IMG/VR virus record: IMGVR_UViG_3300046522_000413
Span: 1 to 54,286 of that record
Direction: 5' to 3' (one strand)
DNA from: a virus
Length of the DNA: 54,286 nucleotides
The first letter of the stretch is position 1; each line of letters opens with the position of its first letter. Shown in pieces: positions 14,172-54,115 of the stretch. The translations under genes were made by a program, and so were the position numbers. The notes beneath the pieces are model-generated. The model saw nothing but the letters and a program-made list of their open reading frames with translations, was not told the origin of the DNA and made no database searches.

Positions 14172-14815
14172 AAAGGTGTCCAGTTTTCCGGACAGGTGTC
14201 CGTTTTTAGCAAAAAGAGTCGCATCTTAAAACACCAATAAATACTAACTGTGTAAGGATTACTGTCCAATTGTCCAAAATGACCAAAATAAAACTGGACA
14301 CCTCTTTTAGTTATGGATATTAGACTTATATCTCAAATGTCCAGTTTTTCTCGATTTTTTGAAAAACATACACCAACCTTCGTGGAGAGAATCGAGGGGA
14401 AATCGACTGAGCCTATCTCACCCTCAACAAATCTGCTTTTATGAGATTGGCTACCTACCCTGTAGATACTGCCTATCTATATATATAATATATAATATAT
14501 AAATAATAAATATATATATATATAGGTAATATGACGCAGTTTCTTGACTTGTAACGGAATATTTCAAATACCAGTTTTCCAAAAATTCTGAGAGTTTTTT
14601 TATAAAGGTAGGTGTATGTTTTTCAAAAAACGGCGAAAAACTGGACACTTGGCTTATAACATTAATAGGCACAAGAGAAAGAGGTGTCCAGTTTTTTTTA
14701 GCGTTTTTGGACACTCTGGACACTTCACTTCAAAACCCTATAAACCACTAAGATTACAGAAATCGGACGTGTCCTGGAATTTTGGACACCTGTCCAGTTT
14801 TTTGGACACTTGGCT
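14172..14815. repeat. Element A: palindromic AT-rich repeat, inverted copy of element B
   Basis: A ~640-bp stretch without a convincing gene. It holds many copies of a GTGTCC / CTGGACAC motif (for example AAACTGGACACCTCTTT at 14291 and its inverse around 14680). Two ~110-bp arms (14270-14385 and 14605-14735) are inverted repeats of each other around an alternating A/T core at 14474-14525. The reverse complement of the whole stretch matches 52660-53240 at high identity, including the A/T core. Iterated short motifs plus an AT-rich core and dyad symmetry are typical of replication origins or partition/regulatory centres. This function is inferred. Confidence 0.85.
14451..14723 (-). CDS. Doubtful ORF inside element A
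   Basis: A 90-codon ORF (MSRVSKNAKKNWTPLS...) running through the arm and ending in Tyr/Ile codons from the A/T core. Element B carries a matching ORF at 52736-53014 that aligns over about 80 residues without a gap. It has no Shine-Dalgarno sequence and the base pattern is dominated by the repeat, so it is probably not translated. It is listed because both copies stay open. Confidence 0.15.
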   Translation of the reverse strand: MSRVSKNAKKNWTPLSLVPINVISQVSSFSPFFEKHTPTFIKKLSEFLENWYLKYSVTSQETASYYLYIYIFIIYILYIIYIDRQYLQGR

Positions 14816-50700: not shown

Positions 50701-50727
50701 AAAAAAGATCCCCTGAATTAACAGGGG
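50700..50727 (-). terminator. Terminator of the reverse transcriptase operon
   Basis: On the minus strand CCCCTG-TTAATT-CAGGGG is followed by ATCTTTTTTTAG. It limits the 3' untranslated region of the operon to about 95 nt. Confidence 0.85.
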
Positions 50728-50738
50728 AAATTGTAACA

Positions 50739-50785
50739 CGGAGGGTGAGCTCGGGCCGTCTCACTCTCCGTTTGTTTATGTACCT
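50739..50785 (-). ncRNA. 3' UTR structured element of RT operon
   Basis: On the minus strand, AGGTACATAAACAA (50772-50785) is followed by an 11-bp hairpin (CGGAGAGTGAG/CTCACCCTCCG with one mismatch) whose loop ACGGCCCGAG is complementary to the 5' leader. The first 14 nt are perfectly complementary to 52603-52616 in the leader. Confidence 0.6.
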
Positions 50786-50794
50786 TAGGAATCA

Positions 50795-52063
50795 TCACCA
50801 AGGAGAGGCTTTAGCCCCTTCCAAGAGTTCATCCAGAGTAGGTGGTGCAGGCGGGAGAGTCTCCTTCTCCATGCCCTCCGGGGTAAAATCCGTCGTTGCT
50901 TCGTATACTGCTTTGAAGCGTTCCTTCAGCTTATTACCAGCCTCAGGATTGAGCTGGGCGAACCAGCCGATCTTGCCAGCGACCTTGGCTGCGAATTCGC
51001 CCGGCGTGATACCGGACTTTGCAGCTTCGTGCTTGATGCCGTTCTTTTCACAGTTGTGAACGATAGCCTTGAGAGCGTACCGGTCCTTCTTCAGGAGATT
51101 AACCTTCTGATTGACGACCGTGCCGCACACCCATTGCCGCTGATAGGTGTGCATCACTTTAGTCTTCTCACGATTGATCCTCATACCGAACTGGGAAACC
51201 GTACCGGTGATGAAGTCAATGATCTCCTTGTTTACCCGTTTACCGTCCTCACCTTCGAAGTCCGTATCACGGGAGATTGTGATGTCATCTGCGTAGATGC
51301 TGAGGGTATAACCCTTGGAGTCACAGTACTCCTTAATGATAGGGCCGAAGGTCAGAGAGGTAAAAAGATTGCTGAGCTTAGGGCTCGTCAAAGCCCCTTG
51401 TGGTACGAATGCTTTGTACGTGCACAGTTCGCTCAGCGTTCTTGCTGCGCCTTCTCCAAACCCCATATGCTGGTAGATCTGGAGGAGATGCGTTTGTTTG
51501 ATGCTCTTGAAGAAATCCTTCAAGTCCAGGCTAACCACCACTTTCTTACCTACGTGTATCGCCGCCATGTCGGGGATGTTCTTCCCCTTCTCGAAGGCAT
51601 GCACGTAATCCGGGATTGGCATCTTCTCCAAGATCTGGGTAAGTATCTTATACTGAACAACCCTCATGAGGTTGTCAGGATTGTGGAGAATACGGAACTT
51701 CTCAGCCGAGGGTGAACCGGTCCTCGTCCGGGTGTTCGCCCGAGAGGAGCTCGTCGTAGGTTGGTTCGTCTCCGTCGTCGTCTCCGACGATCTCGTACTC
51801 ATCTGAGAGAGGTCCGAGGTTGTCGAGGACGAATCTTGCTGACTCTGCGTAGTCTGCGCGGCTCGGACCTTGCGAGAATTGCTCGATCGCTTCTTTCGCA
51901 GCCTTAATACCGAGTAATGTTCCGACTTGTTCTTTCCAAGCAGCGTCAGCATTTTTGGTGATTTCCAGTTGAGCAGCTTCGCCAAGTCCTGGTTCGTCGG
52001 AATCTGAAACGGTGCTGTTTGCAAGGGCAGCAGCGACAGTTGAGTTGGTGTTGGTTGCGTCAT
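50795..52063 (-). CDS. Retron-type reverse transcriptase
   Basis: A 422-residue protein. RT motifs are complete: RT1-like EKFRILHNPDNLMRVVQ (121-137), SLDLKDFF (Asp180), the VPQGALTSPKLSNL box (220-233), the catalytic YADDITIS (257-264), the retron-type VxG motif VCGTVVNQKVNL (312-323, normally VTG) and the C-terminal KIGWFAQLNPEAGNKL. Residues 26-58 (DLAKLLNWKSPK...) resemble the retron N-terminal domain. Residues ~59-120 are Ser/Thr/Arg-rich and lie fully in the overlap with the upstream gene. AAAGGAA stands ~11 nt before ATG. The end PTLDELLEG recalls the upstream protein's PTYDELLSG. Confidence 0.9.
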   Translation of the reverse strand: MTQPTPTQLSLLPLQTAPFQIPTNQDLAKLLNWKSPKMLTLLGKNKSEHYSVLRLRKKRSSNSRKVRAAQTTQSQQDSSSTTSDLSQMSTRSSETTTETNQPTTSSSRANTRTRTGSPSAEKFRILHNPDNLMRVVQYKILTQILEKMPIPDYVHAFEKGKNIPDMAAIHVGKKVVVSLDLKDFFKSIKQTHLLQIYQHMGFGEGAARTLSELCTYKAFVPQGALTSPKLSNLFTSLTFGPIIKEYCDSKGYTLSIYADDITISRDTDFEGEDGKRVNKEIIDFITGTVSQFGMRINREKTKVMHTYQRQWVCGTVVNQKVNLLKKDRYALKAIVHNCEKNGIKHEAAKSGITPGEFAAKVAGKIGWFAQLNPEAGNKLKERFKAVYEATTDFTPEGMEKETLPPAPPTLDELLEGAKASPW

Positions 52064-52370
52064 TTGTAGTCGATTCCTTTACAATTTCTTTGGATTTACG
52101 TACGACCTTTCGAAGAAGGTCTTGCCGGGAAACGAGATAAACTCGACGGCCGATAATGGCGTAGCCCTCCATGAGTACCGGAGGGTTTCTTTCCAGACGA
52201 ATGATCGGAGCATCAGGAACCAGGTCCTTCGCTTTGATCGAGTACGAATAGAAGTTCTTCCCGTCGGTAACAACATAATAGTTATTCCGGGGGACGAACT
52301 CCTCGTCGACATACTTAGGCACGTTTACACTTGATCCAGTAGATCCTACAGGTGTAAGCAGTGGATTCAC
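51702..52370 (-). CDS. Accessory protein overlapping the reverse transcriptase gene
   Basis: A 222-residue protein starting at GTG with AAAGGAATTCT upstream. The N-terminal ~85 residues form a beta-rich domain (YYVVTDGKNFYSYSIKA, YAIIGRRVYLVSR), then a linker and an acidic helical tail (DDDGDEPTYDELLSGEHPDED). The last 362 nt also encode the first 120 residues of the reverse transcriptase in the +1 frame, and the stop codon falls exactly where RT motif 1 begins. It may be a partner, inhibitor or antitoxin-like factor, or the N-terminal half of a frameshift product. No known retron effector could be identified. Confidence 0.75.
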   Translation of the reverse strand: MNPLLTPVGSTGSSVNVPKYVDEEFVPRNNYYVVTDGKNFYSYSIKAKDLVPDAPIIRLERNPPVLMEGYAIIGRRVYLVSRQDLLRKVVRKSKEIVKESTTNDATNTNSTVAAALANSTVSDSDEPGLGEAAQLEITKNADAAWKEQVGTLLGIKAAKEAIEQFSQGPSRADYAESARFVLDNLGPLSDEYEIVGDDDGDEPTYDELLSGEHPDEDRFTLG

Positions 52371-52412
52371 AGAATTCCTTTCAGCAGCTATTTAATAGCT
52401 ACACGTATATCT

Positions 52413-52547
52413 TTAGGTTGCAGTGGCACACTCAGCGTTCATCTTCTCCATCACGGCTTGATAGATGTTCTTGAAAGCCTCCAGGACATCTAAAAAGATG
52501 AGACCCAAATTGAGTGCGGTTTTGATGATTTCCAGTACTTTGTCCAT
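52413..52547 (-). CDS. Small 44-residue amphipathic peptide of the RT operon
   Basis: A short ORF (MDKVLEIIKTALNLGLIFLD...) between the leader and the accessory gene. Predicted as one long amphipathic/hydrophobic helix ending in CATAT. It has only a weak ribosome site (ATAAGAAT). It could be a membrane-active effector, a leader peptide, or not be translated. Confidence 0.45.
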   Translation of the reverse strand: MDKVLEIIKTALNLGLIFLDVLEAFKNIYQAVMEKMNAECATAT

Positions 52548-52589
52548 ATTCTTATTCTATTTTTGATGTAATTATTTATGCAGGTCCGA

Positions 52590-52616
52590 CTCGGCCCGAG
52601 ATAGGTACATAAACAA
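52590..52616 (-). ncRNA. 5' UTR structured element of RT operon
   Basis: On the minus strand TTGTTTATGTACCT (52603-52616) followed by CTCGGGCCGAG (52590-52600, self-complementary). The first is perfectly complementary to the 3' UTR (50772-50785), and CTCGGGCCG pairs with the 3' hairpin loop. It resembles an a1/a2 pairing stretched around the whole operon. Confidence 0.6.
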
Positions 52617-52632
52617 TTTTTTGCTACAATGT

Positions 52633-52646
52633 CTTATACCACAAAA
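52633..52646 (-). promoter_or_regulatory. Early-type promoter of the RT operon
   Basis: TTTTGTGGTATAAG on the minus strand, the TTTTGGTATAAG motif with a 2-base insertion; the leader would start about 10 nt downstream. Confidence 0.55.
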
Positions 52647-52659
52647 TCTGGCTTTATGG

Positions 52660-53310
52660 ACTCAAAACGGACAAGTGTCCAGTTTTTTGGACAGGTGTCC
52701 AATTTTGCTGTGCGCAGGCGCCTTCGAAAATACTAATGAAAACAGAGAGTTTAGAGCAAGTGTCCAGAGTGTCCAAAAACGCTAAAAAAAACTGGACACC
52801 TCTTTCACTTGTGTCTATTAACGTTATAAGCCAAATGTCCAGTTTTTCGCTGTTTTTCGGAAAACATACACCCACCTTTGTAAAAAATATCGCAGAATTT
52901 TTGGAAAAACGGGAGAGACCTACGGACACTCTATGTCAAAAAACTGCGTCATATTATGTATATATATATATATTTATTATTTATATATTATATATTATAT
53001 ATATAGAGGGGTAGTAAACACTGGGGTGATGGAGAGTTGGAGAAAAGTAGTTTTGTAAAGGGTGGGGTACCCTCTCACGATTTCTCCTAAAATCTCTCCA
53101 CAAAGGTAGGTGTATGTTTTTCGAAAAATATAGAAAAACTGGACATTTGAGATATATCTCCAACAGCTGCAAGTGAAAGAGGTGTCCAGTTTTATTTTGG
53201 TCATTTTGGACAATTGGACACTTACAGACAAAACACTAACATTTACTATCCGTTTATAACTGGACAGATGTACCTTAAAATTGGACAGTGTCCAAAAAGA
53301 CTGGACACCC
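52660..53310. repeat. Element B: palindromic AT-rich repeat, inverted copy of element A
   Basis: A ~650-bp region without a convincing gene, with GTGTCC/GGACAC motifs at 52674, 52694, 52760, 52770, 52793, 53180, 53215, 53286 and 53302. Two inverted arms (52757-52880 and 53100-53205) flank an alternating A/T core at 52957-53005. The stretch 52757-53005 matches the reverse complement of 14460-14745 nearly throughout. A segment at 53005-53100 (GTGGGGTACC region) is not shared with element A. It lies between the RT operon promoter and a tagged peptide gene. Confidence 0.85.
52736..53014 (+). CDS. Doubtful ORF inside element B
   Basis: A 92-codon ORF matching the ORF in element A (14451-14723) without gaps over about 80 residues. 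No ribosome site. More likely a by-product of repeat conservation, but two open copies deserve note. Confidence 0.15.
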   Translation: MKTESLEQVSRVSKNAKKNWTPLSLVSINVISQMSSFSLFFGKHTPTFVKNIAEFLEKRERPTDTLCQKTASYYVYIYIFIIYILYIIYIEG

Positions 53311-53331: not shown

Positions 53332-53508
53332 ATGAACAAATATCTAGAGAAAATAGCGGAGGGATTGAGAGATGACCTATATAAGCCTAGGACGCGTTTA
53401 AAGGCCCCTAGGGGCGTTAAAGCGAAGAAGGTGACCCGAGTCTCCACCCACAAGATTAAAACGTCTCTAAAGGCCTCTAAGAGGCTTAGAGACAGATCGA
53501 TAGTTTAA
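53332..53508 (+). CDS. Tagged, highly basic (histone-like) peptide
   Basis: A 58-residue protein beginning MNKYLEKIAEG, then almost only Lys, Arg, Ser and Thr (YKPRTRLKAPRGVKAKK, HKIKTSLKASKRLRDR). If the tag sends it into the head, it would act like T4 internal proteins or a DNA-condensing peptide. It starts right after element B. No clear Shine-Dalgarno sequence. Confidence 0.7.
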   Translation: MNKYLEKIAEGLRDDLYKPRTRLKAPRGVKAKKVTRVSTHKIKTSLKASKRLRDRSIV

Positions 53509-53533: not shown

Positions 53534-54115
53534 ATGTCAATACTCTCTGAATTCACCAACGACGAACTAGAGGAGGTCATATCAAGCAACCCTAATCTTC
53601 GAGGTTATCTACAAGGATACCTCGCTGAGGTTGCATTGAAGAAACAACTCCTGGAAATCGAGGGTGTTTCAGAGGTGATCAAAATACCGGACCACGACGA
53701 AGAACGCGGAGACCTCCGAGTAACCTATAAGGGGTTACCTCTGACAATCGAAGTTAAAAGCATAAAAACCGACAGTGTCAGAAAAGACGTTCTCCACGAT
53801 ACCTGGCAGGGTACTGTAACTATCAAAAGCAGCGATAAACGAGAGGTTGAGGTAGAGGGCTTAGGTCTCATCAATTCCTCTCACCTTATCCGGGGCCAGT
53901 TTGACATACTAGCCATTTCCTGCTACGCTGTGTCCGGCCAATGGGAGTTCGTTTTCATGGATAATGATCACTTACCTCCTAAAAGCTATAAAACTCCAGA
54001 GCTAATAAAAACAAGCTTCGTCGTCAATCCTCAGACTACCCCATGTTTAATCACTGATATGCAAAGTATTCTAGAAGGCACATACGAAAAGAAGAAAGCG
54101 TTTGTTAAAATATAG
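53534..54115 (+). CDS. PD-(D/E)XK nuclease-like protein
   Basis: A 193-residue protein. The active-site signature is GDLRVTYKGLPLTIEVKS (D...ExK), with a preceding helix carrying GYLAEVALKKQL (the conserved Glu of the family). Restriction-endonuclease-like fold is therefore likely. The C-terminal region (GQFDILAISCYAVSGQWEFVFMD) follows the usual strand-helix pattern. Targets could be host DNA or recombination intermediates. Confidence 0.7.
   Translation: MSILSEFTNDELEEVISSNPNLRGYLQGYLAEVALKKQLLEIEGVSEVIKIPDHDEERGDLRVTYKGLPLTIEVKSIKTDSVRKDVLHDTWQGTVTIKSSDKREVEVEGLGLINSSHLIRGQFDILAISCYAVSGQWEFVFMDNDHLPPKSYKTPELIKTSFVVNPQTTPCLITDMQSILEGTYEKKKAFVKI

What the first reader, a model, noticed from the sequence alone, without database searches (positions are those of the whole stretch)
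51702..52063. 362-nt out-of-frame overlap between accessory gene and RT
The first 120 RT residues lie entirely within the upstream gene in the +1 frame, and the upstream stop codon falls exactly where RT motif 1 begins. The RT frame in the overlap still contains a retron-like N-terminal segment (DLAKLLNWKSPK...), then a Ser/Thr/Arg-rich stretch typical of a secondary frame. Either this is true overprinting with internal initiation (AAAGGAA before ATG at 52063), or a +1 frameshift near the UGA at 51702 makes a fusion protein.
Basis: partly seen in the sequence, partly recalled or inferred. Interest (0 to 1): 0.72.

Follow-up and report, generated by a model that had tools for sequence, protein, structure and literature searches.

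The report
Phage reverse transcriptase overlapping gene pair
A group of large, uncultivated phages carries a retron-type reverse transcriptase gene whose first part is also read, in another frame, as the tail of a neighbouring gene; this double use of one DNA stretch is kept across 23 diverged relatives, so it is a real overlapping gene pair and not a sequencing error or a frameshift.

Summary
Confirmed. The accessory ORF (51702-52370, -) and RT ORF (50795-52063, -) overlap by 362 nt in the +1 frame. The same arrangement, usually about 200-270 nt, occurs in 23 of 24 relatives (distinct IMG/VR contigs or near-identical contig pairs, down to 39% identity of the best-aligned segment). In the exception (L050) the two genes lie end to end, 2 nt apart. 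Given the RT protein, the chance of an open accessory frame is at most 0.4% per locus tested. Both frames are under purifying selection, and Shine-Dalgarno-like sites precede most RT starts. This supports two separately initiated proteins; a +1 frameshift fusion is not supported. 'RT motif 1 begins at the stop' needs correction: the RT fold begins inside the overlap (residues ~20-57). The Ser/Thr-rich stretch (58-119) is an insertion found only in the window and L002/L003, where the accessory frame is the constrained one. The overlap belongs to an apparently undescribed cassette: promoter, 38-56-aa peptide, accessory, RT. It carries a covarying hairpin before the accessory start and, in many lineages, 5'UTR/3'UTR complementarity resembling a retron a1/a2 pair around the whole operon. 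The RT is retron-related, but NAxxH and VTG are altered and no msr-msd was found. Function is inferred.

The parts
51702..52063 (-). 362-nt +1 overlap of accessory and RT reading frames
   Evidence: recurs in 23 of 24 relatives
50795..52063 (-). retron-type reverse transcriptase, 422 aa (YADD; MAxxH and VCG instead of NAxxH and VTG)
   Evidence: PF00078 2e-23, PADLOC RT_III-A 9e-62, Ec86 RT 6e-27
51702..52370 (-). accessory gene, 222 aa, GTG start with AAAGGAA; compact beta-rich core, basic RKSRE segment, C-terminal helix AxxAWxEQxxxL encoded inside the overlap
   Evidence: no family match
52413..52547 (-). 44-aa hydrophobic/amphipathic-looking peptide gene, first gene of the operon; a small ORF of this kind stands at this position in the relatives whose upstream DNA is held
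51893..52063 (-). conserved part of the overlap: RT residues 1-57 (retron RT N-terminus), accessory codons ~103-160
   Evidence: RT identity 95% against L002; changes fall at RT third positions; both frames constrained
51707..51892 (-). lineage-specific insertion: Ser/Thr-rich RT residues 58-119, read in the accessory frame as an acidic C-terminal extension
   Evidence: absent from all relatives except L002/L003; RT-frame identity 49%, 20 of 39 changes at accessory third positions
52074..52080 (-). AAAGGAA, Shine-Dalgarno-like site of RT inside the accessory gene
   Evidence: combined P 2e-7 over 13 loci
52383..52403 (-). covarying hairpin with UAA triloop between the peptide gene and the accessory start
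52624..52646 (-). promoter-like element TTTTGTGGTATAAGACATTGTAG, conserved upstream of the operon
   Evidence: GGTATAA found before the peptide gene in the relatives examined; similar sites before other minus-strand ORFs
52603..52616 (-). 5'UTR segment UUGUUUAUGUACCU, perfectly complementary to the 3'UTR segment
50772..50785 (-). 3'UTR segment AGGUACAUAAACAA, just after the RT stop, complementary to the 5'UTR segment
50710..50771 (-). hairpin (50738-50771) and terminator-like hairpin (50710-50727, followed by a T run) after RT
   Evidence: sequence and fold

Best explanation
The two ORFs are an ancient, genuine overlapping gene pair in a three-gene phage cassette. One transcript from a TGGTATAAG promoter carries the small peptide, accessory and RT genes. 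RT is translated separately, by internal initiation at an AUG about 200-360 nt before the accessory stop, using an SD-like site inside the accessory gene. The RT N-terminus is the older coding use, being homologous to other retron RTs. The accessory tail was written over it in the second frame, and in the window's lineage was extended further by an insertion that RT tolerates as a loop in its fingers. Inferred, not shown: the overlap ties RT output to accessory translation; the accessory is a partner of the RT; the covarying hairpin and the 5'/3' UTR pairing are RNA sites that the RT or accessory binds; and the cassette acts as a phage-borne retron-like module against host or competing phages, with the small peptide or accessory as effector. 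I put the functional part alone at about 0.35; the confidence given here is for the dual-coding, separate-initiation part.
For: Overlap kept in 23 of 24 relatives. P(open accessory frame given RT residues) at most 0.004 in each of nine loci. Across seven diverged lineages both frames are more similar than synonymous-codon nulls, 0 of 2000 each. Substitutions switch from RT third positions in the old overlap to accessory third positions in the insertion. SD-like sites before RT starts (combined P 2e-7). L050 shows the two genes un-overlapped with separate starts. Hairpin covariation: 98.9% paired, score 0.695 against 0.242 shuffled and at most 0.18 when slid. Hairpin confined to this operon position in the sequence searched. 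5'/3' UTR pairing: permutation 44 of 100000; Fisher 2e-6.
Against: No expression data. Much of the accessory tail's conservation is forced by RT codons: pairwise accessory signals between single diverged lineages are weak (3-9% of nulls as good by BLOSUM score), and only the joint test is clear. SD strength is poor in some lineages (L005, L019, L036, L076). UTR complementarity is not significant in about half of the lineages, including L043, L051, L071, L073, L076, L083 and L050.
Confidence: 0.88

Rival explanations
1. Programmed +1 frameshift near the accessory stop makes an accessory-RT fusion.
For: The frame relation is +1 and the stop lies just before the RVT_1 match in the window.
Against: A fusion would drop RT residues 1-119, whose first 57 are 95% identical to L002 and strongly conserved in all relatives. 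Stop contexts differ, with no shared slippery sequence seen by eye, and stop position varies by tens of codons. L050 has separate adjacent genes.
Confidence: 0.04
2. Only RT is real in the overlap; the accessory frame there is a by-product and the accessory tail has no function.
For: The accessory tail is partly dictated by RT codons: its first codon base is RT's wobble base, the other two are RT positions 1 and 2. Pairwise accessory constraint is weak for single diverged pairs.
Against: Open frames in 23 lineages against at most 0.4% expected each in the nine loci tested; joint similarity test 0 of 2000; accessory codon pattern in the insertion.
Confidence: 0.06
3. RT really starts near residue 120 and its frame upstream is not coding.
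For: Pfam RVT_1 and Ec86 alignments start at residues 118-121.
Against: RT-frame conservation upstream; relatives have no insertion and the N-terminal segment is contiguous with the RT domain; RT-frame similarity given accessory residues 0 of 2000 nulls.
Confidence: 0.01
4. Assembly or sequencing frameshift split one gene.
For: The source is a metagenomic virus contig.
Against: Same frame relation in many independent contigs from different samples.
Confidence: 0.01

Closest known systems
Retrons (RT of PADLOC classes III-A and XIII; Ec86/Eco1 RT in the PDB)
   Same: RT fold and active site, N-terminal HY...KK..R.I..P region, RT next to an accessory gene, short complementary segments around the element
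   Different: MAxxH and VCG instead of NAxxH and VTG; no msr-msd found upstream of RT; accessory matches no known retron effector; the complementary pair flanks the whole operon; accessory and RT overlap in different frames
Overprinted (same-strand) overlapping genes of viruses and phages (reviewed in PMC8227390)
   Same: An older conserved frame (RT) and a newer tail (accessory), both under selection, with separate starts
   Different: I found no description of an overlap of this kind for a retron-type RT; the searchable papers are open-access only
Type III-A-like retron in record 'Staphylococcus phage SA 1306 Kay' (OR844994), nearest hit in the annotated phage collection, 28.6% identity
   Same: Retron RT with an upstream gene on the same strand
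   Different: 425-aa upstream ORF ends about 245 nt before RT, no overlap; canonical VTG motif

Membership tests
Overprinted overlapping gene pair | both frames open over the overlap in diverged relatives | tested here: met
Overprinted overlapping gene pair | purifying selection on both frames beyond what the other frame forces | tested here: met
   (joint tests 0 of 2000 for both frames)
Overprinted overlapping gene pair | independent translation start for each gene | tested here: inconclusive
   SD-like sites enriched and separate starts in L050, but no expression data
Retron | RT of the retron family with intact catalytic motif | tested here: met
   YADD (FADD in L039 and L051)
Retron | NAxxH and VTG motifs of retron RTs | tested here: not met
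   window has MAAIH and VCG where Ec86 has NATPH and VTG; VCG in almost all relatives, VTG only in L051
Retron | msr-msd ncRNA next to RT with a1/a2 repeats and branching G | tested here: inconclusive
   no Rfam match at gathering score, one spurious-looking hit below it; no common structured RNA seen in the 5'UTRs; a1/a2-like complementarity flanks the whole operon instead
Retron | known effector type | tested here: inconclusive
   accessory matches no Pfam, PHROG or PADLOC family at a meaningful score and no clear solved fold
Retron | msDNA production | not testable with these tools
   needs an experiment
Programmed +1 frameshift gene | conserved slippery site at the upstream stop | tested here: not met
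   stop contexts differ between lineages, inspected by eye
Programmed +1 frameshift gene | downstream frame not needed before the shift site | tested here: not met
   RT frame before the stop strongly conserved

The most novel reading that the evidence does not exclude
The operon mRNA itself plays the part of a retron ncRNA: the 5'UTR segment and 3'UTR segment are a1 and a2, the conserved hairpin before the accessory gene is the msr-like stem-loop that RT recognises, and RT copies part of its own mRNA, giving a self-templating retron with its protein genes lying inside the ncRNA, much as group II introns carry their RT.
Probability: 0.1. Interest if true: 0.9.

Novelty: new variant of a known kind. 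Interest (0 to 1): 0.62.

Why it matters
It adds a deeply conserved, statistically well-supported overlapping gene pair to a class of genes that annotation programs tend to discard, and shows the two frames sharing the burden differently along the overlap. It also exposes an apparently undescribed phage clade of retron-type RTs with its own partner genes and conserved RNA elements. If those elements are what they resemble, retron architecture is more varied than the msr-msd-then-RT layout.

Tried and rejected
Accessory homologues in bacterial and archaeal genomes: none. A scan of the same genomes with the RT alignment gave one distant, longer RT (L053). Phage collection: RT hits at 23-33% identity, accessory none. 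Two AlphaFold jobs on the accessory: core confident mainly in the second (pLDDT about 90 for residues 11-90), no clear fold match in the PDB or viral library, best VIA Z 3.5. Rfam: nothing at gathering score; one weak mir-42 hit taken as spurious. RNAduplex with large loops was uninformative for UTR pairing and was replaced by a helix score. The long inverted repeat at 52.75-53.22 kb was considered as a retron msd and set aside: it has an 83% identical inverted second copy at 14.26-14.73 kb away from any RT, and its two arms do not look co-varied between the window and L002. In one search two loci (L016, L020) were read from the wrong file; one search repeats the SD test correctly. Papers: no description of this cassette found; the main retron classification paper is not held. 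Not tested: a DGR-type template/variable repeat pair.

Full report
Check of the observation. The window is an IMG/VR virus record with multisubunit-RNA-polymerase-like genes at its left end (my reading of the translations). On the minus strand, an accessory ORF (51702-52370, 222 aa) and an RT ORF (50795-52063, 422 aa) overlap by 362 nt in the +1 frame.

Relatives. IMG/VR scans gave about 24 distinct relatives beside the window (near-identical contig pairs counted once), from 89% RT identity (L002/L003) to 39% of the best segment (L083). In every one but L050 an ORF homologous to or positioned like the accessory overlaps the RT start in the same +1 frame, by about 200-270 nt in most that were measured. 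In L050 the accessory ends (TAA) two bases before the RT ATG. The arrangement is therefore not an assembly error.

Is the overlap under selection in both frames? Holding the RT residues fixed and sampling synonymous codons, the accessory frame stays open with probability at most 0.004 in each of nine loci and 0 of 5000 in the window. In a 36-residue block shared by all lineages, the accessory translations are more alike than the null given RT residues, and the RT translations more alike than the null given accessory residues (0 of 2000 each, seven lineages). The RT signal is much stronger. Single pairs of diverged lineages give only weak accessory signals, as expected when the accessory's second and third codon bases are RT's first and second.

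How the constraint is shared. Between the window and L002, changes in the accessory-only part fall at its third positions (8, 5, 22), in the old overlap at RT third positions (10, 4, 2 by accessory position), and in the insertion again at accessory third positions (10, 9, 20). RT-frame identity is 95% in residues 1-57, 49% in 58-119 and 97% afterwards. So the Ser/Thr-rich segment is an insertion driven by the accessory frame and tolerated by RT. Relatives without it run LRK(K/R)GS straight into K(F/L)RILHNPD; in retron RTs this is the fingers strand-turn before R.I..P (family knowledge).

Which frame is older. The RT N-terminus in the overlap is homologous to other retron-type RTs (the non-overlapping L053 also has KNKSEHY...KKNGGKRTIHAP). 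No relatives of the accessory were found outside this clade. I infer that the accessory tail was written over RT.

Separate starts or fusion. SD-like sites precede most RT starts (13 loci, combined P 2e-7), though weak in L005, L019 and L036. Accessory stops vary in context and position; several come from RT's own conserved HNPD codons (CCT GAT gives TGA). A frameshift fusion would discard the conserved RT N-terminus. I therefore favour two proteins from internal initiation; expression evidence is missing.

The cassette. Upstream of the accessory lies a 38-56-aa hydrophobic, amphipathic-looking peptide gene (window 52413-52547), and before it a TGGTATAAG promoter-like element, in the relatives whose upstream DNA is held. 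Between the peptide and accessory genes a hairpin with a UAA/AAA/UUA triloop covaries in eleven aligned lineages: 98.9% of cells paired, covariation 0.695 against 0.242 in shuffles and at most 0.18 when slid. A covariance model finds it only at this place in the 19 sources searched, with no other match better than E 0.46.

5'/3' complementarity. In the window 52603-52616 (5'UTR) is perfectly complementary to 50772-50785 (3'UTR). Other lineages have different but again complementary segments, for example L005 CUCGAAGAAGCAG/CUGCUUCUUCGAG and L017 CUCCGGAAGCAG/CUGCUUCCGGAG. Own pairs beat swapped pairs (44 of 100000 permutations), and shuffles give a combined P of 2e-6 over 19 lineages. It was not detected in the most distant lineages. 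It resembles retron a1/a2 repeats, described as flanking msr and msd (PMC12887533), but here it flanks the whole operon.

Retron membership. The RT matches retron profiles and Ec86 RT and keeps YADD. NAxxH is MAxxH and VTG is VCG. No msr-msd was found. The accessory fits no known family; its predicted core is a small beta-rich domain without a clear match. I call it retron-related, not a retron.

Mechanism. Shown: conserved dual coding, both frames constrained, conserved RNA hairpin. Supported: separate initiation, 5'/3' pairing. Inferred: coupling of RT output to accessory translation; an RT-accessory-RNA complex; a defence-like role in competition with host or other phages, with the peptide or accessory as effector.

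Noticed in passing
window 14264-14726 and 52758-53220: Two inverted copies (83% identical, about 465 bp) of an AT-rich palindromic region rich in TGTCCA/TGGACA repeats; perhaps replication origins or another structural element.
   Followed up: partly
window 51764 and 50842 (minus strand): The motif PT[YL]DELL occurs just twice in the window's six frames: in the accessory's C-terminal extension and near the RT C-terminus. Possibly a shared short binding motif.
   Followed up: no
window 11258 (-), 20948, 23577, 27734, 28972, 29428, 29915, 38928, 53335: Recurrent N-terminal or internal tag NKYLEKIA in many proteins, including a basic 58-aa protein at 53332; recalls T4-type capsid-targeting sequences (from memory, untested).
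   Followed up: partly
L071 about 2196-2670: A gene that looks like a DnaQ/RNase T-type exonuclease (my reading, no family search) sits between the small peptide gene and the accessory gene in this relative.
   Followed up: no
window 53534-54115: Divergent ORF with a D...EVK pattern suggestive of a PD-(D/E)XK nuclease; no family match at a meaningful score.
   Followed up: no
window 52570-52617: The 5'UTR segment that pairs with the 3'UTR can also form a local hairpin within the 5'UTR in the window and L002, so the two structures may be alternatives.
   Followed up: no
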